Part shown: positions 11,258 to 29,957 of the stretch, piece after piece
Layout of the letters: each line of letters starts with the position of its first letter
Numbering within the stretch: position 1 is the first letter of the stretch
DNA from: Taxillus chinensis
Lineage: Eukaryota > Streptophyta > Magnoliopsida > Santalales > Loranthaceae
Reading direction: 5' to 3'
NCBI GenBank assembly: GCA_023512835.1
Contig: CM042084.1
Location: forward strand, 56,350,793 to 56,414,792
Length of the DNA: 64,000 bases
The notes under the pieces: model-generated
What the model was told of the DNA's origin: nothing
What the model saw: the letters and a program-made list of their open reading frames with translations, nothing else
Database searches by the model: none
Program-made: the position numbers and the translations under genes

Positions 11258-11536
11258 TCTGTAGGGAGGGCATATCTGCTTTGTTTTAATTTTATGTGCA
11301 GCATTTGAACCAGGGCCTAGGCCCATATTTCTTTGATGGAGCTTATTTCTGCTAAGGCCCAAATCCAAGCCCAGTTGAATTGAATCAGAGGGGTCCACTC
11401 CAATCTATTGCCCAACCAAGGAGATGAAGTTATGGATTATGAGATGGTATTTTGGGCCCACTAACTGACACGTTTTTGTCCTTGGGAGATGGGCTACTAG
11501 CCTGTCAAATTTCAGCAACTTTGGGCTTCATTTAGG
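11258..11536 (+). other. Spacer between Athila-B pol and the internal promoter-like block
   Basis: No coding potential is seen. The stretch has repeated ggccca words (11329, 11346, 11455) but no clear larger repeat. Confidence 0.5.
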
Positions 11537-12096
11537 GTGTCAACCAGCTTGCCCGTGAGAAGCAGTATTTCACGTGCACATGTATAATGAATCTACAGTT
11601 CATCCGTGACCCTCGGTGAAATTTGGACAAAAAAGGCCCTGACCGTGAAAAGGCTTTTCGCGTGCACAAGGGTAGGATGGTCCAATCGATCTGAAACTTT
11701 GCACAAAGGCAACTGGCATCCTCTAGACCTTTCTGAGACCTGCCTGTGAAAAAGCTTTTCGCGTGCACGAGGATAGAAGCGTCTTTTCGATCTAAAATTT
11801 TGGTGGAAGATAGCTGGAAGTGTCTAGATTCATCCAAGCCCTGCCCGTGAAATCATGCTTTTCACGTGCACACCTACCTTTGGCCAATCATCGAAATTTC
11901 GGTGGGCGATAGCTGGCATCTTCTAGAGTATTCTTTGTTCCGCATGTGAAAATAATGAAGCACTTTAAGAGGGTCATTTTCGTCTTTTACCTTTGTGGCG
12001 AATCACTATAAATAGGGAGGGGCTTCAAGCTTGAAACTCACATCTCATACTTTCCTCTTCCTTCCTGTTGAGAGCAAATTCCTTTTTGGGTCAGTC
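11537..12096 (+). promoter_or_regulatory. Internal promoter-like block of Athila-B: hairpin array plus TATA box before the accessory gene
   Basis: Four to five imperfect repeats of about 100 bp each contain a short inverted repeat of type ccgtgaaaag / gcttttcgcg followed by gtgcac. The cores start near 11551, 11643, 11743, 11843 and (partial) 11942. They are followed by TATAAATA at 12007-12014 in the context tataaatagggagg, close to the LTR context tataaataggggtc at 4605. The accessory gene ATG is at 12097, 83 bases further. The layout copies the LTR promoter. A promoter for a separate transcript of the accessory gene is inferred, not shown. Confidence 0.6.
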
Positions 12097-13366
12097 ATGG
12101 TGCGCACAAGAAGAGCCCGCCAAGGAGAAGGCAGTCTTGAAGCCTCTGCCACCTCTATGCCTTTGGCATTGAGAGAAGCCGACATGATCTTCGTGGGGGA
12201 ATGTACTTGATTGGGAGATCCTGGAGTCCTCCATGCTTGATTGGACCGAAGAAGTTATGACCAAGCCGCAAGCTTTGGGGTGAGAAGGTTAGTATGCGCG
12301 CATGATGATCTATATTACCCTTCCATGTTAGACTTTTATAATTCAGTCTACGTCAATGAGGAAGATGATGAGATCATTGGGGAGGTTCAAGGTGTCTTAA
12401 TTTCTATTTCCCCTGCTATGTTGAGAGACTGCTTTGATCTGCCAAATCCCATGCATGCCATACCTGGCTTGAACTTAGGAGATTATGGTAGAGCTTTACA
12501 GTATAATAAGGAATTTGGGAAACATCAGCAATTTACTAAAAACGGATTTCATGGGAAATACTATTGCCTTGCCAATTTGGTAGGGAGGTGCTTACTATTA
12601 CAGACTAGTGGTGTAGACTCAGTCCCTAAGTCCCATTTGGAGTTTATGTTTTGCATCGATCGTCAGTTACACATTGATTGGGCTGCTGAAATTTTTAAAC
12701 TGTGGAAACGGGATATTCACAAATGTTTATATGGTCGACTACTTAGTATGCTTCTGCAGTATCAATATGGTCATCTTAGTGCTCAAGTAGTCCCCACTGT
12801 TTTCCCGGATAACCTGCGGTTATGAGTTCTCCATCCAGAGGGTGCCTTAGGCGTTAGTTACAAGGGAAAATGGGGAGATAGTATCCACATCGCTCCACAG
12901 CCTTCACGTCATAGCGTACATATGGAGCGACCCACTGAGCAATTTAGGGACACCTCTACTCCCATGAATGCCCGCCGACAAACACATCTTCCAGTTGACT
13001 GCCATGTACATGTAGTTCAATGTTTACAAGGAGGAAGTCTACAATTTCTTCCAAGGCGTCAGTGGCCAAGTTATCAGTGAAGCTGACGTTCTTAACTGGG
13101 CCTTCACTAATGGCCACATCACAAGACTTCACCTGGATGAGTTGCTCGAGTACATCGCTCAAGACCAACAAGCAACCTCTCGTCCATCTGCCCGACCATG
13201 GGAAGCCCCGGAGCCAACTCCTGTTGCTTTTTATGAAGACTTACGGAGGCAAACTGCTAAACTACAGGAGGCACAGGCGGAAACTGTTTAGGAGATCGGG
13301 TCTTTGAAGAATAATCAAACTCTCATCCTCAAGGAGCAGAAGGAAGTCAAAGGTCTGCTTGGTAAG
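12097..13366 (+). pseudogene. Athila-B accessory gene, N-terminal part (Transposase_32-like domain)
   Basis: The likely start is the ATG at 12097, followed by a basic stretch (MVRTRRARQGEG); in-frame TGA codons at 12208 and 12238 interrupt it. From 12241 to 12825 one frame reads through a domain with VQGVLISISPAMLRDCFDLPN, NGFHGKYYCLANLVGRCL, SGVDSVP and DWAAEIFKLW. This matches the plant-transposon family often annotated Transposase_32, found in Athila-type elements. It also aligns with the copia accessory protein at 25843-26470 (same order: V.G..I.I.PA.LR, F.G.Y.C.A....RC, LYGR/YGRILS). A coiled-coil-like tail with SLKNNQTLILKEQKEVKGLL ends where a solo LTR interrupts at 13367. The C-terminal part continues at 14965. 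Function is unknown; env-like by position only, and no signal peptide or membrane segment is seen. Confidence 0.75.
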
Positions 13367-14959
13367 TGAAAGGAGCGTTTATCGCACACGCACTTCAAAT
13401 AAAATTTAAACTAAGTATAGCATAGGGCTAACATAGGTTGTTCACTAATCGGAGGACTTATAAAATTTAATTCAACTTATTCTTCAATACAAATAAATAA
13501 AGAAAATCTAAGTTAGAAAATTGGGGGGTTTTTGATTGAATGAAATTAAAATAAAATAAAATATGTAAAGAAAATTAATGAACTAAAAACGTAATTGATT
13601 TAACCTCTCACTTCAATTATTATTTATCATTATCTTCTAAAAATACAATAACATATTTAAGGCCTCATAATTCAATTGAACCAAGACACCATGATTATAA
13701 TTAAATCATGAATTTGCACTAGAAATCAGACTTGAACTCGTACCAATCCTAGAAACGATTATGTTTTGCATTCAGAAGACTAAATCGAAGACTACGAAAA
13801 ATAATCTTCACATCTCAAAATTAATTAACCGCAACCGCGAATTAATCACAATTAAAAATCATGCTTTAAACAATCCACAATTAACTACAACCGCAAATTA
13901 ATTGTAAAGAATTTAAAACAGGATAGAGGAACAATTGCAAACTATAGCACATAAATAAATTATTAAATTGAAGAAGAGAGATTCAGAATAATAATTGAAG
14001 TTTGAAGCTAAATTAAATACAGAAAATTAAAATAGGATGCATGGGCAGTCTTGCCATGTCACGCCGCAGGCCCTGGTGCTGCCTTGAAAACTGTTGCGCG
14101 TGATGGAGAGATGCAGACGGCGTTGCCGAGATGAGTCGCGATGGAGCTGGGTGTATTGAAGAGATTTGGTGCATTGGGTCTCTTGCTGTCGTGAATATGG
14201 TAGCGTGATGGATAGGCGATTGGATGAGATGGAAGGGATGCACAAGCTGGCGTGGTGGAGGCTGGATGAGGCTACAGCTGAAGCATTGGGTTGCGATCTA
14301 TCCTGACGGCACTTGTGGAAGAGATGGGTTAAAAGGGCTCACGTGGGTCTTGGATGATATCGAAGATGGAACAACGCTGGGTCTCTTATATTCACGTCAA
14401 TTGCCCTTAATTTCCTTTTCTTCACTCCTCATGTATAAGCATCCATGCATTCTTAAGATAGACTCTACTTTAAAATTCACACCTTCACGTCTTTTCTCCC
14501 CGCACAAACAAAACAATTTGACATAAATTAAAATGGTCCACACCAATTCTTTCCTTTCTCTAATACGTAACATGCAAAATAATAAAATTGAAACATAAAA
14601 CAATAAAAACAATTAAGCCCATAATAATAATAATTTATACATGCATGCAAAACAAATACTAATATTACTAATAATAATAAATAAAAAATATAATTTAATT
14701 AACTAAAATATATATAGAAAAAACTCTACTAAGATTAAAATTAAAATAATCAATTAAGCCCAGAGAATTAATATTAAAATTGGAATAATCAATTAAACTT
14801 TAAAAACCACCAAAATTAATATTAAATCTATGAAAATAAATAAAATAGTAAATAATTAAAATTGGGAAAAACTATTATAAAAATGCATTAATTCAATAAA
14901 ATATTTAATTAAAGCCCATAAATTACATGCAAATTTAATGACAAATTTCGTTGTTATCA
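13367..14959 (+). mobile_element. Solo LTR inserted in the Athila-B accessory gene
   Basis: The 1593-bp AT-rich segment starts TGAAAGG and ends GTTATCA (TG...CA). It is flanked by the perfect 5-bp duplication gtaag (13362-13366 and 14960-14964). Taking out the segment and one gtaag keeps the coding frame of the accessory gene open across the junction. No primer site, internal region or second terminal repeat is seen, so it is best read as a solo LTR of an unrelated family. Strand cannot be decided. Reading frames inside are low-complexity or antisense and not supported. Confidence 0.82.
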
Positions 14960-14964
14960 GTAAG

Positions 14965-16015
14965 ATCTGGAAAGCCCTGGGGAAGAAGAAGAAGAAAACT
15001 CCTACACCTCCTATGGAGGATCAATTTGACGCACCGTCACCTCCGGTCCAATGACACGCTGCACATAGCGAAGAGACACCGGAGTATCTATAGTATCCGC
15101 AAGAGGCAGAGCCCTACACTGCTCCACCCTTTCCTACAGCAGCTCCCATTTATTTTACACCACCAGCAGGACCCAGCTCTTCACAGGCCCTTGTTCCCTT
15201 CATCCAGCCATTGCAATGGTGGTCCGGTGCGTCATCAGAAGCTCCCCAGGAAGATAATCTAGGGGAGCCCATCTACATTCATCTTCATCCGGCCCTCTCC
15301 ACTGCTGATGCCATAATTGCTGCCAGCGGTTTACTTATGGAGACACCTTGCAAGCGCGTTTTACGCGTGATTCAGAAGTCTTCACGTCATCCTATTTGCA
15401 GCGTATCCTAGCTGATGAGTACTTATCTTCCGATGACGTTGACTTATTCTGTCGTACGATGCGACGCGTGGTGGAGGCTGAGCCCAACGACTACCCTATG
15501 GCTCAGTACACCTCTATCATGTTGTGCAAGATATATGAGCAGCCGTTAGAGGAGCGCATTTTCTGTGGGCGGATGAATGGAGCAGCAGAAGGACATCGCT
15601 CTTGGCACCAGGTCCATGAGGTTCTTATACTGGCCCTCCTTGATCGACACTTTGTACTCTTGCAATTGGACCTGAGTGTGGGCCATGCCGTCCTTTATGA
15701 CCCGAGCCAAGCCCATGGGTTTTCCACACGAAAGAAGAAGCTCGTCCATGGTTTCTTGAAAAAAATCAAAAACGCACTCAGAAAAGAAGGGTTGTTAACA
15801 TCCAAGTTTCCTCTGGTGCACTTCAATGAAATGGAGCTTCCCCAACAACCTAATCAATTCAGTTGTGGGATTTTTGTCTGTTATTATTTGATAGCTCTGT
15901 TGCAGATAAGGATACTTGGGCGCTCATAGGAGAAACATCGGCTGACTTTGTCGCACGTCTTAGAAGAATGGTGGCCCATGTTATCTTCTACTACAGCGTA
16001 CCCACCAACCGGTAA
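14965..16015 (+). pseudogene. Athila-B accessory gene, C-terminal C48 (Ulp1-like) cysteine protease domain
   Basis: After a Pro/Ser-rich linker (to about 15260) the protease domain runs from about 15340. The triad is visible in one frame: His codon 15648-15650 in RHFVLLQLD, Asp 15699-15701 in AVLYDPSQ, Cys 15864-15866 in NQFSCGIFVCYYL. A Gln three residues before the Cys motif is also present (QQPNQFSCG). His to Asp is 17 residues and Asp to Cys 55, as in C48 peptidases. A one-base loss near 15903 ends the frame at 15929; the intended frame continues to TAA at 16013-16015. C48 enzymes remove SUMO or related modifiers. Whether it acts on host SUMO or on the element's own proteins is unknown. 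The linker has stops and a frameshift. Confidence 0.78.
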
Positions 16016-17163
16016 CGGTCTTTTTCCTTTTTCCTTTCCCATGCTCTGAGGGCATCGCATCGTTTAAGTGTGGGGGGGGGGGGGTGATTTCCCTTGAACC
16101 GGTTGCTTGTTTGTTTGCATGCATGCTTTATTTTATTTTATTTTATTTTTTTCTTTTTTATTTTTATTTTATGTTTTTGTTGTGAATGTATGTTTTGCCT
16201 GTAAGGTGCATGGCTACCAAGGTATGCAAATTCTAGTTGACTATATTGACCACCTTAGTATCTTGTTGTGATAAAGATGTTTCAATCGTTAAGGTGTGTT
16301 ATAATTTAGTTGAGCATGTCTTTACTTTTTGTATGATATCACCATGATTTTGGAGCTGACATTTGAATAGTAAGCTGAGCATGTTATGGTAGGATGAGCT
16401 TTGTAAACCCTGAAGTTGAGTGCAGAATAGGCATATACTTTTTTGAGAGCACCATTATCTTGCCTTTGAGTGTATTTTATGGGTTATTGGGTTACCAATT
16501 TGCTCTTAATGTTCATTACTAGCTATTTAATGGTTGGAGTTACTTAGGCATAAGAAAGTACCTGTTCGTGGCTTAATGTTTGGTGTATGGTGTTAATGAT
16601 TCAAGTATTTCAGCTTAACTAAAAAAATATATATATTATTGTTTATGTGCAACAAAGGGTTGTGTGAGGAAAATAGCAGAGTGAATAATCCATCAAGGGA
16701 GAGCATAAAATGCAACCTTATAAGGTTATCATTTAAAAGAAGTGTGTCTCAAAAAAAACAAAAAAACAAAAAACAAAAAAAAAACAAAAACAAAAGTTTT
16801 GGCTGAGTTGTGAGCTCAATTCTTTAGCTCAAGATGTGTTTTATCAGTCATTAGAGTAGAGTGTGAGTTCATTGAGTAAAGCAAAGTGTGTGAGTTGCAA
16901 AAAGTATACTAGAGGGTGTGTTTTCCTTGACGAGCACAATGGGGACTTCTCATGTTTACGTGGCAAAAACTTAATCAATAGCTAGTAGTGAGTGTAAGAG
17001 TAGATCCTTAGCTGTTAGGCATTGATAGTAAGGCATGAGAGGAGAGAAAAGAAAGTTATATTTGAGTGAGGCTGCTCTAACCTTGGTAAGGACTCTCAGG
17101 GGGAGCTAAGTTTCATTTTATCCTTGCATGTTTGCTTCTATTTGAACTGTTAGTAATGATATT
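16016..17163 (+). other. Noncoding tail of Athila-B, up to the copia insertion
   Basis: No credible gene is seen. The text is colinear with the Athila-A tail at 561-1740. A G homopolymer of about 14 bases at 16071-16084 follows aagtgt, and A-rich low-complexity runs lie at 16740-16795. The tail is cut at 17163 by the inner copia element and resumes at 29958. Confidence 0.7.
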
Positions 17164-18374
17164 TGTTGGATCAAACCCAGAATTTGGATAATGCCGTTAA
17201 AGCCTTATGTAATTTGATCTCGAGATCTTTTGTGTTTATTTGATCATTGCGAAGGTATGTCACTAATCCAAAGATGCACTCGTGAGAGCAAAGCTAAGGA
17301 CAGGATACATAATCCTGATCCTGGACAAGAGTTAGTGTCGTCAAACACTTGGTAAATAACCAAGTAACAATAAGTGCGGAGTAAGGAAAATAAATGCGGA
17401 GTAAGGATAAATGCGGAGTAAGGATAAGTGCGGAGTAAGGAAAATAAGTGCGGAGTAAGGAAAATAGATGCGGAGTAAGGAATCCGGACTTATTACTCGC
17501 CCGGAGTAAGGAACTTACATACGAGTAAGGAACTTACACACGGAGTAAGGAACTTACACACGGAGTAAGGAACTTACATACGGAGTAAGGAACTTACATA
17601 CGGAGTAAGGAACTTACATACGGAGTAAGGAACTTACATACGGAGTAAGGAACTTACATGCGGAGTAAGGAAGCGCTGACACGGACTAAGGATTCTAGTA
17701 CTGAATAGATACGGAGTAAGCAACCACTGACACGGAGTAAGGTTCCGAGCTTCATTAACTACGGAGTAAGGAAAATTACACCGGACCAAGAAGACACTGC
17801 TCCAATGAAACCGCATTTAAAGTTATCAGCTCGTGCTGTCCCGATGTAAGAAGAATGCATTTAGAACAAGAAGAATCTTACACGTGGATCATCCGGATAT
17901 GTGGACACAACCTTAATTGTATCTCGGAACTCACAAAGACACTTATACTCTTCAAATCCAAGATCTTGAGCTCCACAATCCGCAGCGATCAAGGCAGATA
18001 GATTACCGAGGGATAGTTAGTGCGGAACGCATTCCGGAACTTCAAGTTCCAAGGTTGTCTCTTAGGAATGTTTTGTATAAATATTCATACTTATACTTCT
18101 TGTAAAAAGAGTGAGCGAGAGCGAAGAAGTGCAAAAATAGAAAAGGCACTTGGCTAGTGTGTGAATTCAAAGTTGTAAACAGAGTGTAAGAGAGTGTTTG
18201 CTTCTATTTTGTTGTAATCACTTTGTGATAATAAAACAAAATACTTCCACTATCTGGTTATCTTCCGAGTGATATTATCACTTAAACTAGATAAGTCTTT
18301 GTGTCTTGAGAGAAAAGAAAGAGTTCGAATAAGAGCCTATTCACCCCCCCCCTTTAGGCTCCAAGGGACCATCA
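17164..18374 (+). repeat. 5' LTR of the inner copia
   Basis: The 1211-bp LTR contains an array of about 20-bp units with cggagtaagg (17370-17780), a TATA-like tataaat at 18076-18082, and a C-rich run before the end (cacccccccccttt, near 18343). It ends at 18374, two bases before the primer site. The other copy is at 28745-29957. Confidence 0.93.
17370..17780 (+). repeat. Tandem array of cggagtaagg units in the copia LTR U3
   Basis: The core cggagtaagg occurs about twenty times. The most regular part (about 17500-17665) is a 20-bp unit of the form aacttacatacggagtaagg repeated eight times or so. The same array is in the 3' LTR at 28970-29365. Decayed forms are in the outer copia LTR (3510-3800), in the reversed solo LTR (34660-35240, as ccttactccg) and at 53890-54060. 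It marks the family and may be a repeated binding site. Confidence 0.85.
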
Positions 18375-18376
18375 AG

Positions 18377-18389
18377 TGGTATCAAAGCA
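18377..18389 (+). other. Primer-binding site of the inner copia, initiator-Met tRNA
   Basis: The bases tggtatcaaagca lie two bases after the LTR end. They match the complement of the initiator-Met tRNA 3' end except for one position (A where G is expected). Confidence 0.85.
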
Positions 18390-18436
18390 AGTTCTACTTC
18401 GTTCTAAGTAGAGATCCCACTCTTTCAATCTCGGAA

Positions 18437-20480
18437 ATGGCCGAAGAAAGCAGTATGCTTTTCAACACTCGCCTTAACTCCGGAGGTGCACAGGAGCCCA
18501 TCCCAAATCGAAGCGCCGGTGAAAATGTCGATCCACCACAACCTGCTGCCGCCACCGCTTCTCAACCACGGAGTTCTGGGTTTACTCTAACGAAACCGCC
18601 CAAATTCACACCTGAGCTTTTCTCCCAGTGGAAAGCTCGCATGAAGATGTTTATGGTTTGCCATGATCATCTTATGTGGCCATGTCTTCATCAGGAGATT
18701 CCAATTCCGATGACTATCGGAGAACATGGCGTAAGGAGGCCAAAGACCGATCGTTGAACTTACCAACGATGAAAGAGCCTGGCGGTGCGCTAGTGAAAAG
18801 GCTCGGCTTATGTTACATCGTCCTTGGATTCCGAAGCTTTCACAGACGTCCGGGGCTGCACGACAGCAAAAGCTGTTTGGGACAAACCGACAATCCTCTA
18901 TGAGGGGAGTCGGTCCCGGATGCAGAATGTGATCGTACTCTTAGACGAACTTTGAGAGTTTTAATCATAAACCGGGCGAATCACTTGAAAGCATCTATCG
19001 GAGATTCGGCAAGCTCATACTTGAACCGAAGACTGTCAATGAGCATTACTCTCAATCCCGGATCAATGACAAGTTCTTTCGCTCCTTGCCGGATCGCTAC
19101 TACTCCAAACAACTCCGGATGCAATCGGACAAAAGCGCGGTATGTTCCCCTTGAAGAACTATATGGAGAGTGCGGACTCACGAAGTCAGGTTTAAGTACT
19201 CCGACAGAGATGAAAAAATAGCTCGGAAAGAAAAGGGGGTAGCTCTCAAAGCTACCGAATGTCTAAACATACCGAGGAATGATGATACGGACGTATCCGA
19301 CAATTCCGATTCGACGAGGAGGAGGAGATAGCCCTTCTTGTCAAATCCTTTGAGCGATTCCTACGGAAAAGCGAAAAGGGGTCGAAGACGCTCATCATCA
19401 TCGTTCCAACGGAAGGAGCGACCCGAGTCCAGTTCCCAGGAATGTTTCAACCGTGGGAAAACCGGTCACCTGGGCCAAGGAATGCAGGTCCAAAGCAAAG
19501 GTGGCCGAGAAAAGTGACAAGGTAAATTCTCGCCGCTCCACCTCGGATAACAGCAAGAGCAAGAGAAAGGCGCTCGTGACAAAATACATGAGTGGCTCGG
19601 AAGAAGAGGAGGAATCCTCGGATGATGAGCCGACCATTAAGCCGAACGTCCGCCTCATGGCAAATCTGAGGTACCTTCTATCTCGAGCTCCTGAGTAAAT
19701 TAGAATCTCTTACTATTGCATGTGATCATGAAAAGAATGAGAGACTAATAATAACTCAAATGTACAAAGATATGGAAAGTCGGAATAAACGTCTCGAATT
19801 TACCATTAATAGACTCGAAAAGGACGTCGCCGACTTCGGGGGAAAGGAAGCTTGGTATCATGATCTAAGAGCTGAAAATCATCTCTTAAATACCAATCTC
19901 TCAGGCCTAAAAGTTATAGTTAAAAGACTCGAAAATGAATTGGAACAGAAAAAGAAATAAATCGTAAGTGGCTAAAATCCGGGGAAATAGCCTCTACCTT
20001 TAGGGACCGATCCCTGACGACATTCGAGTCAAACCTGGTCTAGGTTCTGAACCATCAACCTCCATAGCTAAAGCCACTGAGTGTCCTCCGGATTTCACTC
20101 CTAAACTAACCAACTTATATCCTGTTAGTACATCTAAACCGTTGGATGGTTTCATTTCAGGTGGCACCATAGTTTATGATCGTGGAACCGAGGTACATTC
20201 GCACTTCCCGAAGCAGTAGCACCCGTAACTAAAGATGAAGGGAAGGCCGCTGCAGTTAAAGCCAAAACCGTAGCACCCAAAAAGAAAGACAAGGCTAAGG
20301 CCGACGCATTTAGGGCCAAGAGCGCGTCACCCAAACGTAATGGATTAGGCCACGTGGAACAGTAGAAAATCAGTAAAATCTAAGAGACCTGTATCCCCTG
20401 TTTGTACTTCACATTATAGTGTCTGTTCCATCTGTAGGGAAATGGGTCATTATCACTATGAATGTTGGAGTCTATCGATA
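18437..20480 (+). pseudogene. gag: Inner copia gag, broken
   Basis: The ATG at 18437 opens MAEESSMLFN and a Pro/Ala-rich stretch, then the capsid start FTLTKPPKFTPELFSQWKAR. After frameshifts, capsid pieces continue at 18676-19220. A first zinc knuckle near 19455 is damaged (CFNRGKTGH, second Cys lost). A coiled coil lies at 19760-19960 (RNKRLEFTINRLEKDVADF). An intact CX2CX4HX4C knuckle, CSICREMGHYHYEC, is at 20424-20465. Two knuckles and a long coiled coil in gag fit Sireviruses. A Lys/Ala-rich stretch at 20225-20330 has been stopped in frame. A close relative of the coiled coil is at 63765-64000 on the minus strand. Confidence 0.8.
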
Positions 20481-20769
20481 GCTGGCTTTGTAATCAATTT
20501 CAATCAAATAAAGATCAGTTTTATAAAAGGGGTTCTTCGAGCAAAACAAAATCTAAATCTAAAAGGAGTGTCTCTCCCAAGAAATCCCAAATAAAAGAAG
20601 CAATTGAAACTAACAAGTTAATGTCAACTTGGAAAGCTAAGAGTCCTAACAAAATCAAATCCGTAAATGTTGACAATCTGCTGCTCACTCTAACCGCCCG
20701 AAACAAGTTTGGGCACCAAAAGTGTAAATTGTTGTCTTTCAGGAGCATCTCTGGAATGAATTGCCGGAT

Positions 20770-21130
20770 CACTTGAAGTTAAAGATAAATCAAAGCAAGT
20801 GGATCCTTGATAGTGGATGCTCCGGACATATGACGGGTGACCAGGACTCTACTTGTAGAAGTTAATGATAAACAAGGTCCATCCGTCTCATATGGCGACA
20901 ACAGCAAAGGTAAGACTGTCGGGTATGGCACTTTAACTAACGGCTGTGTATCAATCACTAAAGTTGCACTAGTCGAAGGTTTAAAGCATAATTTGCTAAG
21001 TGTCAAGTAAACTATGTGACAAAGGATTTCTTGTTTCCTTTTTGTCCAACACCTGTAAAGAAGAGAAAACTTATCCGGAGATGTTAAGTTATCCGGATCA
21101 AGAGATGGGGACATATACTCGGTGGTCTTA
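20770..21130 (+). pseudogene. pol: Inner copia aspartic protease, broken
   Basis: The catalytic motif WILDSGCSGHMTG starts at 20800, with the catalytic Asp codon at 20809-20811. Ty1/copia proteases typically read DSGA/C-S-x-H-M. Downstream the domain can be followed through a frameshift (VSYGDNSKGKTVGYGT in another frame near 20890) to about 21110. Confidence 0.78.
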
Positions 21131-21179
21131 AGAAATAATTCTTCGACCCTGTATGTTTCCTCACGAAAGCAACAGATGA

Positions 21180-22150
21180 AGATAGTTGGTTATGGCACAA
21201 GCGATGCGCACATTTGAACTTTAAGACTTTGTCTAAATTAGCATCACTTGATCTTGTCACCTGGTCTACCCAAACTCAAGTTCTCCAGAGACACTCTCTG
21301 TCGAGAATGCCAACTTGGTAAACAGACCAAACACGCTTTAAGAGCAAATCGGTTAACTCAATAATCGCTCCTCTGCAACTTCTTCATATGGACCTATGTG
21401 GTCCTATATCTGTTTCATCACTAGCCGGTGCGAGATATACCCTTGTGGTTATCGATGATTTCACCGGATACACATGGGTGATGTTCCTGAAATCAAAGGA
21501 TCAAACTTTTGAACATCTTGTAGATCTCTTCAACTGGATAAGCAACTCACAAGGACTGAGCATTAAATGCATCAGGAGTGATCATGGTACAGAATTTGAT
21601 TTTTCCGAAATGAGATCATATTGTTCGAACAGGGCATACAACATGACTTTCTGCGCCCAGAACCCCACAACAAAATGGGGTAGCCGAGCGCAAGAATCGA
21701 ACTTTAGTTGAAGCTGGTAGATCCATGTTAGCAGGGGCAATGCTTCCTCTCGCCTATGGGCTAAGCTGTGTCCACCGCCGCTATGTTCGGAACGGAACTC
21801 TAATAAATAAATCTACCATGAAAACACCCTATGAGATGTGGAGAGGTCGAAAACCTTCAATTTCACATTTCAGAGCCTTCGGATGTACTTGCTATATACT
21901 GATCAATGGCAAAGAGACCCGGAATAAATTTGAACCAAAAATCGATGATGGGATTTTTGTCGGGTACTCACTTCATAGCAAGGCTTATCGGGTCTTCAAT
22001 AGAAAACTTTTTAAAGTTGAAGAATCTATCCATGTAACCTTTGATGAAGCTAATCTCGATTGGTCAAAAGTCGGTCCTTCAAATTCTAATCTGCAGGTCA
22101 TAAACAAACGTCGATTACTCAAAGTTTATGAATATTCCTGCTACACATCC
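21180..22150 (+). pseudogene. pol: Inner copia integrase, broken
   Basis: The zinc-binding GAG-pre-integrase part is readable as WLWHKRCAHLNFKTL near 21190 and CRECQLGKQTKH near 21300. The catalytic core has the first Asp in MDLCGP (codon 21391-21393), the second in IRSDHGTEF (codon 21580-21582) and the Glu in a VAERKN motif (codon 21686-21688), reached only after a frameshift. The C-terminal part MKTPYEMWRGRKPSISHFR and IFVGYSLHSKAYRVFN (21815-22010) is typical of copia integrase. Confidence 0.86.
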
Positions 22151-22229
22151 TGACTGGTATCCTGACCAACCACGTGGCATCCGCGAAACACAACGGAATT
22201 TTATGGATGATGCTACGGATGACTCAGAC

Positions 22230-22301
22230 TCCGGACTACCACTTAGCTCCGGACTACCACTTAGCTCCGGACTACCACTTAGCTCCGGACTACCACTTAG
22301 C
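22230..22301 (+). repeat. 18-bp tandem repeat coding for a hexapeptide array in the copia polyprotein
   Basis: Four identical 18-bp units (tccggactaccacttagc) encode repeated SGLPLS in the linker between integrase and reverse transcriptase. The flanking frame 22128-22718 stays open through the array. Identical unit sequences suggest recent slippage. Confidence 0.9.
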
Positions 22302-22649
22302 TCCGGACAAACTCCTGCAGATACACAAAATTCCGGAGCACCTTCAAGTCCGTCCGGACTAGTTAACACTGAAAGAAACAGTGTTGAAGAACCAATCAGT
22401 TCATCCGTACCTCTAAATACGGAAACATCTACTCCGGACGAAGCCCAACCAGTTGATAGAACTGAACCACCCTATTTGGAAGAGCTTCAAATTGTTCAAG
22501 GACAACCAACACACGCACAGAATTATAGATGGACTCGAAACCATCCCTCAGATCAAGTGATTGGTGATCCTACTGTTGGTGTAAGAACAAGAGCAGCCAC
22601 CTCAAACATGAGTCTTCACTCATGCTTTCTATCTCAAATAGAACCAAAG

Positions 22650-23498
22650 GTGGTAGATGAAGCTCTTCCAGGATTCAAACTGGATAGAAGCCATGCAAGA
22701 AGAACTGAATCAATTTAAGAGAAATAATGTGTGGACCTTAGTACCAAGGCCTAAGTCTCAGCAAGTCATTGGCGTTAAATGGGTGTTCCGGAACAAACTT
22801 GATACGGATGGAATAGTAATCCGGAACAAAGCCAGGACTGGTAGCCAAAGGATATCGTCAAGAAGAGGGAATAGATTATGATGAAACCTTTGCTCCGGTC
22901 GCAAGACTTGAGGCAATCCGAATGTTTCCGGCGTATGCTTCATATGAAAACTTCATAGTTTATCAAATGGACGTCAAGAGCGCATTCCTGAATGGAGACC
23001 TTCAAGAGGAGGTGTATGTTGAACAACCTCCCGGCTTCATTGAACCTAAGGCAGGACATCTTGTCTACAAACTTCGAAAGCTCTATATGGTTTGAAGCAA
23101 GCTCCCGAGCCTGGTACGACAAAATCGTCGGAATTCCTACTTGCTCATAACTTCCAAAAAGGGAAGATAGATACCACCCTATTTCTACGACAAGAGAAAG
23201 GACACACTCGATCGTACAAATATACGTGGACGATATCATTTTCGGATCAACAAATCCGAAGCTTTGTGAAGAGTTTGCTAAGTTGATGACAGGCAAGTTT
23301 GAAATGAGCATGATGGGAGAACTGTCCTACTTCCTTGGAATTGAAGTCAAACAATTAAAGGAAGGAATCTTTATCAATCAGGCTAAGTACACTCGCGATC
23401 TTATTAAGAAGTTTGGTATGGAAGGTTCATCTCCCGTCAAAACTCCAATGCCTGTCGGTGCCAAGTTAGATCCGGATATGGACTGGCATATCAAGTAA
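22650..23498 (+). pseudogene. pol: Inner copia reverse transcriptase, broken
   Basis: Pieces in order: MQEELNQFKRNNVWTLVPRP near 22690, VIGVKWVFRNKLDTDG, then after a frame change the [13 protein letters not shown] and [27 protein letters not shown] regions around 22900-23040. The catalytic box YVDD is at 23223-23234, followed by IIFGSTN. MMGELSYFLGIEVKQLKEGIF and the AKYTRDLIKKFGM stretch close the domain. The regular Ty1/copia motifs are all present, but at least three frame breaks separate them. Confidence 0.88.
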
Positions 23499-23500
23499 AT

Positions 23501-24238
23501 GTGACCGACTACGAGAGGATGATCGGATCCTTGCTCTATCTTACGACAAGTCGCCCGGACATTATGTTTGCAACTTGCATTTGTGCACGATATCAGGCGA
23601 ATCCCAAGGAGTCACATATGCTTCATGTAAAACGGATCTTAAGGTATCTCAAAGGGACGATGAATTTGGGACTCGGTACTCAAAGGAGTCCAACTTCACC
23701 TTATCAGGGTACTCGATGCCGACTTGCTGGATGTCGCATCGACAGGAAAAGCACAAGCGGTACATGTCGGTTTCTTGGAAATAGATTGATCTCATGGTTC
23801 GAAGAAGCGAATTCCGTATCAACCTCTACCTCTTGAGGCGGAATATATCGTGCTTTGGAAGTTCGTTGCGCACAACTACTTTGGATGCAAAGTCAACTTA
23901 TCGACTACGGATTCAACATGTCCTCTATTCCACTTTATCGTGACAACACTAGTGCAATTGCCATCAGCAACAATCCTGTCATGCATCCTAAGACGAAGCA
24001 CATTGAGGTCAGGTATCACTTCATACGCGATCATGTTCTTAAAAAGCATATTTCACTGGAACATGTTGCCACCGAAGATCAATTAGCAGACATATTTACA
24101 AAGCCCCTCCCCGATGCGAGGTTTTCTCGAACTACTCTTCCAACTAGGTATGCTCGACTTCTCTGCATAGTTTCTCATTTAAATTTCACAACAAGATATT
24201 CTCTCACAAACCATGCATTGTATGTTTACCGAAAGTAG
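23501..24238 (+). pseudogene. pol: Inner copia RNase H, broken
   Basis: DYERMIGSLLYLTTSRPDIMFATCICARYQANP starts the domain. DRKSTSGTCRFLG follows in frame. After a frame change, IPLYRDNTSAIAISNNPVMHPKTKHIEVRYHFIRDHV carries the conserved late motif, and EDQLADIFTKPLPDARF marks the usual end of copia pol near 24120. The frame runs on to a stop at 24238. Confidence 0.88.
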
Positions 24239-25842
24239 TAGAAAGACCGCATTGCTGATCATACTTACCGACTCCACGGTTCCATGTTTTCGATGTTAAT
24301 CTCAACCTCATAATGGGAGGATGCTTGCGTTTCCCGACTGAAGTCGTTTAAAGCTAACATAATTACAGTTTATATGATTTACCTCGATCGGATTCATGAT
24401 CTTCATATCCATTAATCACCACATGATCAAAGCATGTTCATTTAGATTACTCCATTAACATGCATAGTTGAAGGAGTGAAATGGGCTAGCTTGGAATGCC
24501 TGGTGGATGAATACACAAACGCATTTCGATCGCCTTCGAAGTATAGTCTTCTAATAAGATAGACAGTGCTGAACTACAAATTGGAACGGTCAACCGAGAG
24601 GATTGCACAATCTACGGGGGAGAAAATGCTTTATATTTTATTCAAGTAATACCCCCGTATATGTCTCATGACCTTTTTCCTTGACCTGTCTATATCGAGG
24701 GGGAGCTTTTCATTGAGAGGATTAAATGATCTACGGGGGAGCAGCAATGAACCCCTAATATGTCTCGGATTCTCCCTTCTCTACGCTATTACTTCCGGAT
24801 CCGATGGACATGCTTGTTTTAAATCGGAAAAGTGGCATGTGTGGATGTATGTTCTTCCTTCAACCATGCATTTTAATCGATTAATCATCTGCATTCTTTT
24901 GACATGTGTTCACCTTTTCATCTCACACTCATGAATCCTAATGAAGCCAAATCATTTGACCTTTAATTAATCTTAGCTACGTTTGTCAAGCAAGACGGTT
25001 TCGCTATGTTGACCTATATGAACCTGTGTATTGCTATCGACATATGCCCTGACTCAAGTAATATTGATCAAGTTCACATTGCGTACGTCTACTATATTCT
25101 TAGCCATGCATGAGTTCTGTTTCTTATTAGTTCGGATTATGTTGTTTTTCATTGATTATCTTCTCTAACTGTACTAATCTTTGCCTGTTAAGCTTTTGTA
25201 TTTTCAGATATTTTTATTTAGCTACAGGTTCAGATTTTCTTTGCAATCAGTATTGATAAATCCAGTCCATAGTCTCGGATTTGAAGTGTTGTGGTACTTC
25301 TCTTCGCTTTGACTTATTGATCGCAAAGGAATCTACTCTACATTCTCACCAAACTCTGTTTACGACCTGGACAAGGTCTATTATTCATCCGGATACTCTT
25401 TCACGAATATTATTAACTCCGGATGAGTGTCGGCTCTTTCCTCCGGACTCCGACTTTGTTCAATTGTGCCAATCCACGTATACTCATATGTCGCATGCTT
25501 TTGAGGAGGAATAATGATGATTCATTAAATGCCTATCTCGGGTTGCACACACACTTCTCCTGGATGGCAACCAGTTGTCATCGCTACTTGGTCATGCGGT
25601 CTCCACGACATCGTTTTATTCGGAGACGCCTCGATATCCGGACAAATGACATCGGCATGTCGCGCGGGTCCCCACCTCACTCCCACATTCCTAGACCCGC
25701 CGACATTTGCGGACTTGGTCTTATATGTTCGGATCATTCCTGCGAAGCACGAGTATTGCTTATTTCAAATCCCTAACCCTCTCGTTGCTCCTTCTACCGT
25801 CAAGACCTCACCTTTCCTCTTTTCCTTCCCATCGAATCTGCA
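24239..25842 (+). other. Spacer between copia pol and its accessory gene, with repeated polypurine-like tracts
   Basis: No convincing gene is seen. G-rich purine tracts resembling the polypurine tract before the 3' LTR occur near 24614-24622, 24697-24705 and 24733-24742 (each gggggag in context). Multiple such tracts are a known feature of Sireviruses. Short reading frames at 25281-25776 have no recognised domain and may be chance or the start of a longer leader. Confidence 0.6.
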
Positions 25843-28582
25843 ATGGCACCCGAATCTTTCTTTCCTGGCGTTAATCCTGGCCATCTAGTTGATTGGAATG
25901 CTGTTTCTAATCCTCCGGATTGGTTTCACCATCTTCGCTCTCTTCTTGAAGCCTCGCACATACTCAACCTGGTCTCCAATCCCATCGATCTTTTTATCGA
26001 TGACATTCTTGAGTATTACCAACGGATTCGCCGCACTACCGATTCCATAACCTCTCATGTCCGCGGCGAATCCATCATCATCACTCCGGCTGTTCTCCGC
26101 GCCGCTCTTCACCTTCCTCTTGGTGAACCACAGCGTCCGGATGCCGAACCGATGGCGGCTTCTATGGGGTGCACATCCAAAGGGAAGGAATACAAGGTGA
26201 AATCCTTCCAGGGTCGCTATCGATGTATGGCGACTATTCTAAGTCGATGCCCACCGGCTCGCACATCAGCCCTGGACTCGGTTCCGTACGATCTTCTACC
26301 TGGCCATGTACGGCGTTTTTGAAGGTCTTCCGATGGATTGGGGGATGTTCTTATTTCGTTTGCTACAGAATGGTCCCAAAAACCATTCCTATGGGCGCAT
26401 CCTCAGCATTGTCTTCCGGCATCTTCGTCCGGACCATTTCGCCCAAGTTGATGCTGTCTCGTTTCCCTCGGCTCTTTATCTTCGTCACCTTACGCCGGAC
26501 GGAAACATGACCGCTCGCCGACCCACGGTAGCTCTCCGCGCTCCGCCTGCCTCGGAACAACAAGGCAGCTCGTTGGTGACCCCTCCGACAGCCAAGCCCC
26601 CGAGGTCGGTTCAGACACCGAGCCTCCCGGATTCGGTCCGTAGCTGCGCCCTCCCACTCACGGGCCTCCCGGCCCAAGCGTCCGTGCTGAACCGTCCGAG
26701 GTTGCGGGGCCCTCTCGCGCGCGGGGCGTCGAGAGCTATTTCCTCCGCCCCCTCTGCCGCCGATGTTCCCACTCCCTCCACATCCGCTATAGCCGCCGCG
26801 GTTGATACCGCCGTTGCCGCCGCCACCGGCGATGTCCCGGCCGCTTCTCCCTGAAGCCCCCTTGCCTCCTCTACCTCAACCCCGAGATTACCTTGACCAT
26901 CTCTCCGCCGTCACCTTAACGGACCTCGGCTCCGTTTCGCTTAGCCCACACCTCCTCCATTCCCGACAACGATCTCCGGGTGTTTTACACACGCAATACC
27001 CAATCCCCGGAGACTATGATCATCCGGAATCTGGACCACGGCTTTCTTACGCCGGCTGCCATTCCCGATGTGTCGTTCCCTACACCCTCAGGCCCAGCCC
27101 CCGCTACCCGAAGTCCTTCTCCCCGCTAAGGCTGGGCCCTCTTCTCTTGCCGCCGCGATTCCCGTAGTTGACTTGTCCGGTCAAAGCAGGTCTCTTGCTC
27201 CGGATGCCTCCAATGCTCCGGATGCCTCCGAAGCTCCGGATGCCTCGATGCTCCGGATGCTCCTGCTCTGCTGCTTACTCCTGCGGACTCCTCTCGCCCA
27301 CCGCACTCCCGCTCCTGTTCATGCGGGGGAGTCCTCCAAAGCTCCAGAGTTAGCCCTTGGGCGTGCCTCTTTGGCACGGTCCACTCCGATGCTTGTGCTT
27401 TCCGCTCACTGGACCGCCATGCTCACGCTCAAAGCGCCCAAATTTCCGCCATCGCCGCCAAAGTTGATGCCCTCGGCGCCCAACTACTCTCCGCCCTCAC
27501 CGACTCCTCCACTTCCATTGAGCAGAAAATGGATCTTGTCGCCACCTCCGTTCATTCACTATCTACTTCCTTCGCGGATCTGGCGCATACGATGGCTCGT
27601 CCTCCCGTTGCTTCCCGGCGATCCGCCAAACCGGGGGAGAAAGTGTCATCTCGATCCATCTACTCCTTCGCCCCACAACCATCTTCCCGGACCGAGAAGC
27701 GACCCGCCACTTCGGTGCTTCAGGGAGTTCCAATTCCCAAACGAAGCCGCTTCTCTCAACCTAGTTCCTCTATCGCACCTCCAGCTCCTCCTCCATCCTC
27801 TTCATCCGCACTGGTACCTTCCTCCCATCCTATGCGGAGTTTGACCCGTCCGATGCGGATGGAAGCTTGCGCAAGGCAATGAAGGCCTATCTTTGCGTCG
27901 TCGCCGAGAGAAGATGTCTTTTCGAAATGTATCCTTTCTCTCCGACCGACATTCGGACTCTTTGTTCGGAGAAAGGACTCTTTACTACGAAGACATTGAT
28001 AACTTCTCGAGAGTCGCTAAAATGGAGATGAGGTCGTTTCCATCTCTTTACGAAGATGGGCACTTGTTTGAAGTTCTGCCATGTTGGAATGAGGGCTATC
28101 TTCCCGGTGTGGAGTTAATTCAGACTTACATCGACGGAACCGTCGAAGATAGCAAGCCATGGAAAACTCTCTCAACCATCCTCATTCCGTACCGGATCAT
28201 GTCGCCACACTTCATGATGGTCGTCTTCATGATTCAATCCAAGCAGATGATTCTCATTGATTCTCATCAGATTGTGGAGCACTTCGTTAGGAAGAATCAA
28301 TGGGAACCTCGTGTCTCGACTAACCGAAGCCGTGAAGAAAGCCGGACTATATGAAGAGTTGGGTATCACACCCCTGCGCTCTACCGAGAAACTCAAGGCG
28401 ACATTCCGGGGCAAGAAGCAAGTGCCACAACACCGGATGGAGATAGCTGCGGAGCCTTTGTTTGTCATTTCATCAAATCGTTCTTAATTGTGGACAAACA
28501 TTGGAGCCAACACTCCACCTTTACGATGCAGCAGACAATGGAGCTAAGAGAGAAGGCAAGCAACTATGATCTTCAAGTATAG
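25843..28582 (+). pseudogene. Inner copia accessory gene: Transposase_32-like N-domain, Pro-rich linker, C48 (Ulp1-like) protease
   Basis: The ATG at 25843 opens MAPESFFPGV. Residues about 60-180 carry VRGESIIITPAVLRAALHLP, SFQGRYRCMATILSRCPP and LDSVPYDLL, then in another frame DWGMFLFRLLQ and SYGRILSIVFRH, matching the Athila-B accessory domain block by block. A GC-rich Pro/Ala/Ser linker (26500-27880) follows, including an APDAS-type repeat near 27200-27250. The protease shows His (codon 28208-28210, SPHFMMVVF), Asp (28259-28261, MILIDSHQ) and Cys (28448-28450, DGDSCGAFVCHFIKSF) in one frame, His to Asp 17 residues apart and Asp to Cys 63. A TGA at 28352-28354 interrupts, and the frame ends at TAG 28580-28582. 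Linker frameshifts also break it. The element has no separate promoter that I could see before the ATG. Confidence 0.8.
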
Positions 28583-28731
28583 TAAGCCTTATGTACCTTA
28601 GTGAAAAATCTGTATTAAGGCTGATCTAGATTTAGTTTTTGAGCAATGAAATTGGTTGTGGTGTATATTCGTATGATATTCGTTTGCATCGCTTACCAGG
28701 ATCGGATTACAAAGGGTTTAGGCATATCCAT

Positions 28732-28744
28732 AATTGGGGGAGAT
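28732..28744 (+). other. Polypurine tract of the inner copia
   Basis: aattgggggagat lies directly before the 3' LTR at 28745 and primes plus-strand synthesis. Confidence 0.85.
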
Positions 28745-29957
28745 TGTTGGATCAAACCCGAATTTGGATAATGCCGTTAAAGCCTTATGTAATTTGATCT
28801 CGAGATCTTTTGTGTTTATTTGATCATTGCAGAAGGTATGTCACTAATCCAAAGATGCACTCGTGAGAGCAAAGCTAAGGACAGGATACATAATCCTGAT
28901 CCGGACAAGAGTTAGTGTCGTCAAACACTTGGTAAATAACCAAGTAACAATAAGTGCGGAGTAAGGAAAATAAATGCGGAGTAAGGATAAATGCGGAGTA
29001 AGGATAAGTGCGGAGTAAGGAAAATAAGTGCGGAGTAAGGAAAATAGATGCGGAGTAAGGAATCCGGACTTATTACTCGCCCGGAGTAAGGAACTTACAT
29101 ACGGAGTAAGGAACTTACACACGGAGTAAGGAACTTACACACGGAGTAAGGAACTTACATACGGAGTAAGGAACTTACATACGGAGTAAGGAACTTACAT
29201 ACGGAGTAAGGAACTTACATACGGAGTAAGGAACTTACATGCGGAGTAAGGAAGCGCTGACACGGACTAAGGATTCTAGTACTGAATAGATACGGAGTAA
29301 GCAACCACCGACACGGAGTAAGGTTCCGAGCTTCATTAACTACGGAGTAAGGAAAATTACACCGGACCAAGAAGACATTGCTCCAATGAAACCGCATTTA
29401 AAGTTATCAGCTCGTGCTGTCCCGATGTAAGAAGAATGCATTTAGAACAAGAAGAATCTTACACGTGGATCATCCGGATATGTGGACACAACCTTAATTG
29501 TATCTCGGAACTCACAAAGACACTTATACTCTTCAAATCCAAGATCTTGAGCTCCACAATCCGCAGCAGTCAAGGCAGATAGATTACCGAGGGATAGTTA
29601 GTGCGGAACGCATTCCGGAACTTCAAGTTCCAAGGTTGTCTCTTAGGAATGTTTTGTATAAATATTCATACTTATACTTCTTGTAAAAAGAGTGAGCGAG
29701 AGCGAAGAAGTGCAAAAATAGAAAAGGCACTTGGCTAGTGTGTGAATTCAAAGTTGTAAAACGAGTGTAAGAGAGTGTTTGCTTTTATTTTGTTGTAATC
29801 ACTTTGTGATAATAAAACAAAATACTTCCACTATCTGGTTATCTTCCATGATGATATTATCACTTAAACTAGATAAGTCTTTGTGTCTTGAGAGAAAAGA
29901 AAGAGTTCGAATAAGAGCCTATTCACCCCCCCCCCTTTAGGCTCCAAGGGACCATCA
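28745..29957 (+). repeat. 3' LTR of the inner copia
   Basis: It spans 1213 bp and is the near-identical partner of 17164-18374, with about a dozen differences, several being one-base insertion/deletion differences. It ends ccatca and is followed by the second atatt duplication. Confidence 0.93.

What the first reader, a model, noticed from the sequence alone, without database searches (positions are those of the whole stretch)
12241..26470. The same accessory domain in a Ty3/gypsy (Athila) and a Ty1/copia element
The Athila-B protein at 12241-12825 and the copia protein at 25843-26470 align block by block: VQGVLISISPAMLRDCFDLP against VRGESIIITPAVLRAALHLP; GFHGKYYCLANLVGRC against SFQGRYRCMATILSRC; GVDSVP against ALDSVP; DWAAEIFKLW against DWGMFLFRLL; YGRLLSM against YGRILSI. 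Both genes follow pol after a noncoding spacer and precede the 3' LTR. Two superfamilies that separated very early therefore share one gene at one position. This implies gene exchange between elements (one is nested in the other here), or independent capture from a common source.
Basis: partly seen in the sequence, partly recalled or inferred. Interest (0 to 1): 0.9.

Follow-up and report, generated by a model that had tools for sequence, protein, structure and literature searches.

The report
Third gene shared across retrotransposon superfamilies
Two very distantly related kinds of plant jumping gene carry the same extra gene, a putative Ulp1-type protease joined to a domain of unknown function, although their core copying genes show no similarity by the same tests; the gene has most likely moved between them.

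Summary
The similarity is real and larger than reported. The Athila (Ty3/gypsy) element at 3991-31692 and the SIRE-like copia element at 17164-29957, both with LTRs and 5-bp target duplications, share a two-domain third gene between pol and the 3' LTR: a Transposase_32-like domain, then a C48/Ulp1-type peptidase domain. Profiles of copies from the same genome match at E=2.9e-34 (first domain) and 4.9e-19 (C48); a cross-domain control fails. Naturally open copies give 94 bits for Athila-copia against 97 bits for two Athila subgroups (first domain), while pol gives 18-20 bits (E about 0.6) for Athila-copia and 635 bits within Athila. So the gene most likely crossed between superfamilies after they split. 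Of 8 copia-type loci fetched with flanks, 7 have copia pol on the same strand, so this is no accident of nesting; dN/dS is 0.14-0.38 in 28 of 28 copia pairs. Limits: all copies are from one genome and were found through the domain itself; direction and donor are unresolved; the copia C48 half is recognised only through its Athila relatives; Transposase_32 membership is below Pfam's cut-off. Function is inferred only: perhaps removal of SUMO or a like modifier from host proteins. An envelope role is not supported but not excluded.

The parts
3991..31692 (+). Athila (Ty3/gypsy) element; LTRs 3991-5513 and 30173-31692 (96.9% identical), TSD CCAAG, primer site TGGCGCCGTTGCCGGGGA
   Evidence: self-BLAST; ends; integrase zinc-binding domain PF17921. 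The name Athila and the tRNA-Asp type of the primer site are recalled; relatives L014, L026 and L028 have RVT_1
12097..12207 (+). N-terminal start of the Athila third gene (MVRTRR...), cut off by an in-frame stop
   Evidence: ORF list; same start as P0002
12241..12825 (+). Athila third gene, Transposase_32-like domain
13016..13291 (+). Athila third gene, middle part (reads like the middle of the 748-aa frame of L021)
   Evidence: by eye
13367..14959 (+). TG...CA, LTR-like insert flanked by GTAAG, separating the two parts of the Athila third gene
   Evidence: sequence read; no second copy tested
15309..15929 (+). Athila third gene, C48/Ulp1-like peptidase domain (H, D, Q, C positions present)
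   Evidence: PF02902 E=3.6e-8; profile of Athila C48 E=2.4e-8 to SENP1
15..658 (+). remnant of a second Athila C48 domain at the window's left edge
   Evidence: 77% nucleotide identity to 15432-16073
17164..29957 (+). copia (Ty1) element, SIRE-like; LTRs 17164-18374 and 28745-29957 (98.8% identical), TSD ATATT, primer site TGGTATCAAAGC, inserted in the Athila 3' region
   Evidence: RVT_2 55.7 bits, rve 31.6 bits (cut-off 32.6)
25843..26322 (+). copia third gene, first part of the Transposase_32-like domain
26306..26482 (+). copia third gene, rest of the Transposase_32-like domain in another frame
26483..27886 (+). copia third gene, Pro/Ala/Ser-rich linker with a basic PKRSR motif (broken frames)
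   Evidence: open counterpart in L036
27887..28585 (+). copia third gene, C48/Ulp1-like domain in broken frames (27887-28354, then 28355-28585 with CGAFVC)
17375..17672 (+). 20-bp tandem array (TGCGGAGTAAGGAACTTACA, 14.7 copies) in the 5' LTR; same at 28955-29253 in the 3' LTR
28735..28742 (+). polypurine octamer TGGGGGAG starting 10 bp before the 3' LTR; GGGGGAG occurs 6 times in the internal region
   Evidence: rule from PMC2829016 (passages)

Best explanation
Athila (Ty3/gypsy) and a SIRE-like Ty1/copia lineage of this plant carry one homologous accessory gene between pol and the 3' LTR. It encodes a Transposase_32-like N-terminal domain, a low-complexity linker and a C-terminal Ulp1-type (C48) cysteine peptidase domain. 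The gene passed between the superfamilies, directly or through a carrier, as one unit, long ago but well after the superfamilies split, and then descended with each element under purifying selection (homology and constraint: shown; lateral passage: inferred from distances; donor and direction: not resolved). A plausible route is template switching or read-through between co-packaged element RNAs (inference, not tested). Most likely function (inference, about one in three): the protein acts in the nucleus, the N-terminal domain binds a partner or the element's chromatin, and the peptidase removes SUMO or another ubiquitin-like protein from host silencing or integration factors, which favours expression or insertion.
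For: Homology: hhalign copia vs Athila first domain prob 99.9, E=2.9e-34, 221 columns (6 copia and 7 Athila rows chosen); C48 prob 99.1, E=4.9e-19, 165 columns (4 and 5 rows); control, copia first domain vs Athila C48, prob 0.2. Open frames: Athila L021 vs copia L036 94.0 bits, E=9e-24, and 35.8 bits, E=7e-6, for the two domains in order; L021 vs Athila C L020 96.7 and 80.9 bits; pol Athila vs copia 19.6 and 18.1 bits, E=0.62 and 0.68, within Athila 635 bits. One unit: L021 (748 aa) and L020 (674 aa) hold both domains in one frame. Belongs to the elements: of 8 copia-type loci with flanks, 7 have copia pol upstream on the same strand and all 8 have C48; 8 Athila loci have pol and both domains. 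The window's copia domain has 150 matches of 150 scored, at least 84% identical, 12 with a stop. Constraint: dN/dS 0.14-0.38 in 28 of 28 copia pairs; 0.15-0.23 in 6 of 6 Athila A pairs without the window copy. Distances; no pol or gag piece of one window element finds the other at E<=0.01. Peptidase: PF02902 to E=5.6e-14 and SENP1 E=2.4e-8, for Athila.
Against: All comparative copies are from one genome, and all loci were found through the first domain, so the share of copia or Athila elements that carry it is unknown. The 6 copia loci were picked by me as likely copia; L033 seems to have a masked stretch between pol and gene. Not every distance is even: in the first domain B-C (33%, score 310) is closer than B-copia (28%, 204) and C-copia (26%, 167); in C48 A-copia scores 68 against A-C 114 and 36 against 81 bits in open frames, though the copia pieces are shorter. 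The two RT stretches overlap only in part. The domain tree gives no supported copia clade; without L017 it even places L025 beside Athila (88/85), which would read as copia-to-Athila if the long root were trusted. Copia C48 is not recognised by Pfam (0.016 at best) or in the PDB. No uninterrupted copia frame seen holds all four catalytic positions; 5 of 7 copia copies seen there (L023, L025, L031, L032, L036) have a stop next to the Cys, the window copy a frame change, L033 neither. My basic-motif patterns found nothing in Athila L020 and L024. No activity, localisation or binding is tested.
Confidence: 0.72

Rival explanations
1. Independent capture: each lineage took the gene from a common third source, such as a host gene or a DNA transposon carrying both domains.
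For: Ulp1 domains are known in Mutator and Ginger transposons (PMC2836005, passages). L017 is a 746-aa frame with a Transposase_32-like domain (38 bits) and no retroelement pol found by my probes in 5.7 kb upstream and 7.9 kb downstream. Athila copies form one side of the tree.
Against: No C48 found at L017. Same position, strand and order in both elements would need the same fusion gene to be caught twice in the same place.
Confidence: 0.23
2. Vertical descent from the common ancestor of Ty1/copia and Ty3/gypsy, with loss elsewhere.
For: Athila copies form one side of the domain tree.
Against: Pol between the two is at noise (18-20 bits) while the third gene gives 94 bits. The third gene evolves faster than RT: within copia RT 91% vs first domain 71% (medians, 7 and 9 rows). 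Athila elements with canonical Transposase_32 have RT 65% like Athila A but a first domain at noise level (score 33).
Confidence: 0.03
3. Nesting artefact: the copia copy holds a piece of another Athila element inserted between pol and the 3' LTR.
For: Nested insertions abound in the window.
Against: 7 of 8 copia-type loci have copia pol on the same strand; copia copies are 49-57% or more like each other and about 30% like Athila; dN/dS below 0.4 in 28 of 28 pairs.
Confidence: 0.01
4. About function: an envelope-like (membrane) protein, as such genes in SIRE and Athila elements are often called.
For: Position between pol and the 3' LTR; literature usage (PMC3414828 passages, PMC7264820 first of three parts). 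The 19-residue hydropathy maxima of 3 of 5 frames (1.64-1.75) reach the customary 1.6 (recalled).
Against: All five maxima (1.35-1.75) lie inside the two domains; a C-terminal peptidase domain is present. Some frames are cut, so a segment outside them is not excluded.
Confidence: 0.07
5. About function: decaying baggage without use.
For: Window copies are broken; recurrent stops beside the copia Cys.
Against: dN/dS well below 1 in the pairs that can be read; 7 of 150 copia hits lie in open frames of 500 aa or more.
Confidence: 0.07

Closest known systems
SIRE/Sirevirus eORF-3'F ('env-like') genes
   Same: Same place and strand in a copia element with Sirevirus-like polypurine tracts; [quoted passage not shown]
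   Different: Here the gene has named domain content (Transposase_32-like plus C48), constraint, and a homologue in Athila.
Athila 3' additional ORF with Transposase_32 (sunflower Athila 14, PMC11728184)
   Same: Athila element, 3' sense ORF, Transposase_32 match, predicted nuclear signal (passages).
   Different: 'Ulp1' has 0 occurrences in that paper, and the passages read name no copia counterpart. In this genome the strong Transposase_32 copies with Athila pol show no C48 by my probes (7 of 7) and only weak kinship to the shared gene.
ORF3 sharing among bdelloid rotifer retroelements (PMC5408684)
   Same: Same accessory ORF types in unrelated retroelement classes, read as gene sharing (abstract).
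   Different: Animals, other enzymes (GDSL esterase, DEDDy exonuclease), other retroelement classes.
VANC anti-silencing proteins of VANDAL transposons (DUF1985; PMC5735166)
   Same: Transposon accessory protein; binds short motifs in same-orientation arrays of its own element (passages); the copia LTR here has such an array.
   Different: No DUF1985 row among the Pfam hits of the shared gene; no binding tested; 'Ulp1' has 0 occurrences in that paper.
Ulp1 domains in Mutator and Ginger transposons
   Same: Ulp1-type peptidase carried by a mobile element (PMC2836005, passages).
   Different: DNA transposons; no Transposase_32-like partner named in those passages.

Membership tests
Ty1/copia, SIRE lineage (Sirevirus) | copia pol (RVT_2, integrase before RT) | tested here: met
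   rve at 21388-21708 (31.6 bits, cut-off 32.6), RVT_2 at 23226-23495; RVT_2 E=1.2e-76 in L031
Ty1/copia, SIRE lineage (Sirevirus) | octamer AGGGGGAG starting 10 bp before the 3' LTR, with extra copies upstream | tested here: inconclusive
   TGGGGGAG at the right place (one change), 6 GGGGGAG in the internal region vs a mean of 0.27 (max 3) in 200 single-base shuffles, but one exact AGGGGGAG, elsewhere
Ty1/copia, SIRE lineage (Sirevirus) | placement in the SIRE clade of an RT/INT tree | not testable with these tools
   no reference collection of plant elements on hand
Athila (Ty3/gypsy) | gypsy pol (RVT_1, RNase H, then integrase) | tested here: met
   window: PF17921 after the RT-like frames, but its own RT pieces give no Pfam hit; its relatives L014, L026, L028 have RVT_1
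Athila (Ty3/gypsy) | placement in the Athila clade of an RT tree | not testable with these tools
   name rests on recalled primer site, size and third gene
Pfam Transposase_32 (PF20167) | score over the curated cut-off of 45 bits | tested here: not met
   window 15.3 and 12.1 bits; whole frames L025 26.6, L023 27.5, L021 29.4, L020 33.0, L026 27.5, L017 38.0, L036 19.7
Pfam Transposase_32 (PF20167) | profile-profile match to canonical members of the same genome | tested here: inconclusive
   Athila T32-C48 vs canonical prob 12.7, E=0.0023; copia prob 1.1, E=0.049; single-protein E-values are 2e-9 to 6e-6
Peptidase C48 (Ulp1/SENP) | over the PF02902 cut-off (20.7 bits) | tested here: met
   Athila: window 33.9, L021 37.2, L020 52.9, L022 46.2, L027 46.0. 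Copia: not met on its own (15.5 bits at best), linked through Athila C48 at E=4.9e-19
Peptidase C48 (Ulp1/SENP) | catalytic His, Asp, Gln, Cys | tested here: met
   Athila L020 aligned to SENP1 (E=0.13 alone). Copia: positions present in L032 and L033, but not in one uninterrupted frame
Peptidase C48 (Ulp1/SENP) | SUMO or ubiquitin-like isopeptidase activity | not testable with these tools
   needs protein
Retroviral-type envelope | membrane-spanning segment | tested here: inconclusive
   hydropathy maxima 1.35-1.75 in 5 T32-C48 frames, all inside the domains; 3 of 5 reach the customary 1.6
VANC/DUF1985 | DUF1985 domain | tested here: not met
   no DUF1985 among Pfam hits at E up to 10 or 1

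The most novel reading that the evidence does not exclude
Plant LTR retrotransposons of both superfamilies trade one nuclear accessory gene, a target-binding domain joined to an Ulp1-type peptidase, that strips SUMO or a like modifier from silencing factors on the element's own chromatin. The same-orientation tandem motif arrays in the copia LTR would be its address. The heterogeneous 'env-like' genes of SIRE and Athila elements would then be, at least in part, fast-evolving versions of one counter-silencing gene, not envelopes.
Probability: 0.12. Interest if true: 0.9.

Novelty: new variant of a known kind. Interest (0 to 1): 0.62.

Why it matters
The origin and function of the third genes of SIRE and Athila elements are stated as unknown (PMC3414828, PMC6317226, passages). 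A homologous, constrained, two-domain gene in both superfamilies shows that at least some of them are one gene that moved. It gives a defined enzyme class to assay in place of 'env-like', and profiles for sorting other groups of these genes. [quoted passage not shown] I found no report of this in my searches, which cover open-access papers only and of which I read listings and passages.

Tried and rejected
AlphaFold2 on the Athila domain (3 sequences): mean pLDDT 40, so no fold search was made. Protein database: copia piece 0 hits, Athila domain 1 hit (P0002), L025 first domain 0 hits. Viral contigs: no relative. First-domain profile vs PDB: none; copia C48 profile vs PDB: none. A first tree with 3 copia rows placed copia between Athila groups; with 9 copia rows this went away, so I claim no direction. 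The RT tree of Athila had 10 partly filled rows and one starred branch; I use distances and open-frame comparisons instead. Vertical descent and nesting artefact were rejected, envelope left open, as above. The whole-genome search with P0001 did not complete, so the number of Athila copies is not known. Pfam Transposase_32 matches in the genome: 147, with 150 of 869 candidates scored; matches to the window's copia domain: 150 of 150 scored, of 7184 candidates, the window's own copy included; both are lower bounds. On checking my draft I lowered the best explanation from 0.78 to 0.72 and common source from 0.3 to 0.23, and raised envelope from 0.04 to 0.07, because the copia clade is unsupported, loci were found through the domain, the basic motif is missing in two Athila frames, and hydropathy is marginal.
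Full report
What is there. An Athila (Ty3/gypsy) element spans 3991-31692 with 96.9% identical LTRs and TSD CCAAG. A copia element spans 17164-29957 with 98.8% identical LTRs and TSD ATATT, and sits inside the Athila 3' region, downstream of the Athila third gene. Athila itself sits in an older LTR related to the copia one (3688-3990 matches 17662-17962, and 31693-31786 matches 17958-18053). With a recalled rate of 1.3e-8 per site per year the LTRs date to about 0.5 My (copia) and 1.2 My (Athila).

The observation. The five block pairs are real and in order. BLASTP gives 31% over 118 aa, E=2e-14, and 31% over 59 aa, E=8e-6. Window-wide tblastn gives E=1e-13, and 0 of 500 shuffles reach either score. 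The copia gene changes frame between the blocks. A partial relative of the Athila protein, P0002 (82% identity over 44% of the query), extends the similarity to the N-terminus.

A second shared domain. Downstream of the first domain both genes continue into a C48/Ulp1-type domain. Athila 15309-15926 scores PF02902 E=3.6e-8. The copia Cys piece scores only 0.016, and the His/Asp piece gives no match. Between the window copies the tblastn E-value is 3e-4. So the shared unit is a two-domain gene.

Copies in the same genome. The window lies in a 521-Mb genome. A PF20167 search gave 147 matches among 150 scored of 869 candidates. I fetched 20 regions around such matches, 6 more chosen as likely copia, and two small ones. 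Of the 20: seven with strong Transposase_32 have Athila pol upstream on the same strand and no C48 by my probes (L009-L011, L013-L016); L012 has no same-strand pol. Eight have Athila pol, the first domain and C48 (L019-L022, L024, L026-L028). L025 has copia pol, the first domain and C48. L018 and L023 have both domains without pol in view. L017 has the first domain alone. All 6 chosen regions have copia pol on the same strand (in L033 across what seems a masked stretch) and the first domain at 49-57% identity to the window's copia copy, and C48. Because loci were found through the first domain, these counts show that the gene sits in copia and in Athila elements, not what share of them carries it. 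A search with the window's copia domain gave 150 matches of 150 scored (7184 candidates) at 84% identity or more, the window's own copy included; 12 have a stop inside, and 7 lie in open frames of 500 aa or more. Athila frames of 748 aa (L021) and 674 aa (L020) hold both domains. Copia frames of 868 aa (L025) and 864 aa (L036) run from the first domain into C48 but end before the Cys.

Homology by profile. Copia vs Athila first domain: prob 99.9, E=2.9e-34, 221 columns. C48: prob 99.1, E=4.9e-19, 165 columns. Copia first domain vs Athila C48, as a control: prob 0.2. These E-values are for single comparisons of small alignments of rows that I chose. Athila C48 as a profile finds SENP1 at 2.4e-8 and Ulp1 at 5.6e-4; L020 alone reaches only 0.13; the copia C48 profile finds nothing in the PDB. 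The His, Asp, Gln and Cys positions align in L020 with SENP1 and occur in copia L032 and L033, though not in one uninterrupted frame. Of 7 copia copies seen around the Cys (window, L023, L025, L031, L032, L033, L036), 5 have a stop within a few codons of it, at differing places, the window copy has a frame change, and L033 has neither.

Selection. NG86 dN/dS for the first domain is 0.14-0.38 in 28 of 28 copia pairs. In Athila A it is 0.15-0.23 in the 6 pairs without the window copy; of the 4 pairs with it, 1 is finite (0.15, dS 2.8) and 3 are saturated. Athila C48 gives 0.06-0.22 in 6 of 15 pairs, the other 9 being saturated. Pairs share branches and some copies are decayed, so these are descriptive.

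Exchange rather than inheritance. First-domain similarity, median local score: Athila A-copia 222 (30%), A-C 213 (31%), A-B 370, B-C 310, B-copia 204, C-copia 167, A-canonical 33 (noise). A reverse-transcriptase stretch: A-C 307 (72%), A-canonical 274 (65%), A-copia 23, where shuffles average 24.5 and reach 44; the Athila and copia stretches overlap only in part. So I compared naturally open frames: pol Athila-copia gives 19.6 and 18.1 bits, E=0.62 and 0.68, and 635 bits, 67%, within Athila. The third gene gives 94.0 bits for Athila A-copia (L021-L036) and 96.7 bits for Athila A-C (L021-L020) in the first domain, and 35.8 against 80.9 bits in C48, where the copia frame is cut before the Cys. 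No pol or gag piece of one window element finds the other at E<=0.01; only the third gene does. Within copia the third gene changes faster than RT (71% vs 91%, medians of 9 and 7 rows), so it is not the better-kept relic of a shared ancestor. It also disagrees with RT inside Athila: canonical-Transposase_32 elements are close in RT and at noise level in this gene.

Trees. In the first-domain tree Athila A, B and C form one side (100/100 without L017; 94/87 with it), and A+B are together. The copia rows are one side with no support (31/0), or, without L017, not one side, with L025 beside Athila (88/85); the root branch is very long. In the C48 tree copia and Athila are each one side (100/100), with the same order of A, B and C (A+B 84/81). 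The two domains thus agree that they moved as one unit, and donor and direction stay open. An early tree that nested copia inside Athila did not survive more rows.

Function. The evidence stops at domain content, constraint and sequence features. The highest 19-residue hydropathy values of five long frames are 1.35-1.75, all inside the two domains; 3 of 5 reach the customary 1.6 (recalled), so a membrane role is unlikely but not excluded. Basic motifs of the PKRSR kind are in copia L023, L025 and L036; L021 has two inside C48; L020 and L024 have none by my patterns. Ulp1-type enzymes remove SUMO or related modifiers (established for the family). I therefore favour a nuclear peptidase that acts on host proteins, with the first domain as its targeting part; this is inference, about one in three. 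The copia LTR has a 20-bp array with GGAGTAAGG in one orientation, 14.7 copies in each LTR, like the arrays bound by VANC anti-silencing proteins (PMC5735166, passages). That is an analogy only; no DUF1985 match was found.

Relation to the known. SIRE eORF-3'F and Athila 3' ORFs are known. [quoted passage not shown] PMC3414828 (passages) says the origin in Sireviruses and some Gypsy elements is unknown. PMC11728184 (passages) reports Transposase_32 in a sunflower Athila 3' ORF. PMC5408684 (abstract) reports ORF3 sharing among rotifer retroelements. None of the passages I read reports the gene in both plant superfamilies or with a C48 domain. My searches cover only open-access papers, and supplements were not read, so prior notice elsewhere is possible.

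Noticed in passing
L017 5737-7974 (+) and L035: A 746-aa frame with a Transposase_32-like domain (38 bits) beside a KIB1-4 gene (E=2.5e-35) and a second copy of it, without retroelement pol by my probes in 5.7 kb upstream or 7.9 kb downstream; about 60-bp tandem repeats lie just upstream. Possible host-captured copy or unknown mobile element.
   Followed up: partly
17375-17672 and 28955-29253: Tandem array with GGAGTAAGG in one orientation in both copia LTRs; the motif has 41 plus and 5 minus copies in the window, nearly all in LTRs of this family and its relatives, three at 53893-53981.
   Followed up: partly
L009-L016: Athila elements with canonical Transposase_32 (to 106 bits) have close RT but a third gene only weakly related to the T32-C48 gene, so Athila seems to carry at least two unlike third genes.
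   Followed up: partly
L023, L025, L031, L032, L036: Stops at differing places beside the C48 Cys in 5 of 7 copia copies seen there, not in L033. Could be decay, or the Cys part may be dispensable or made by read-through.
   Followed up: no
3513-3990 and 31693-31786; 32816-35424 (minus): Older LTRs related to the copia LTR; Athila inserted into one of them.
   Followed up: no
13367-14959: TG...CA insert with GTAAG duplication between the two parts of the Athila third gene, like a solo LTR.
   Followed up: no
window copia vs L029-L034: RT stretch 88-95% alike (5 of 6; none found in L033) but first domain of the third gene only 49-57%, so the third gene may evolve very fast or be swapped within copia too.
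   Followed up: partly
L021 and L036, between the two domains: A weak collinear match (16.9 bits, E=4.9) around FFQGISGQ...INWAFTNGHIT hints that the middle part may be shared as well.
   Followed up: no
36408-38193 and 41810-43596 (minus): Two copies (88% identical, opposite strands) of gypsy-like pol that match the Athila pol pieces, another gypsy family.
   Followed up: no
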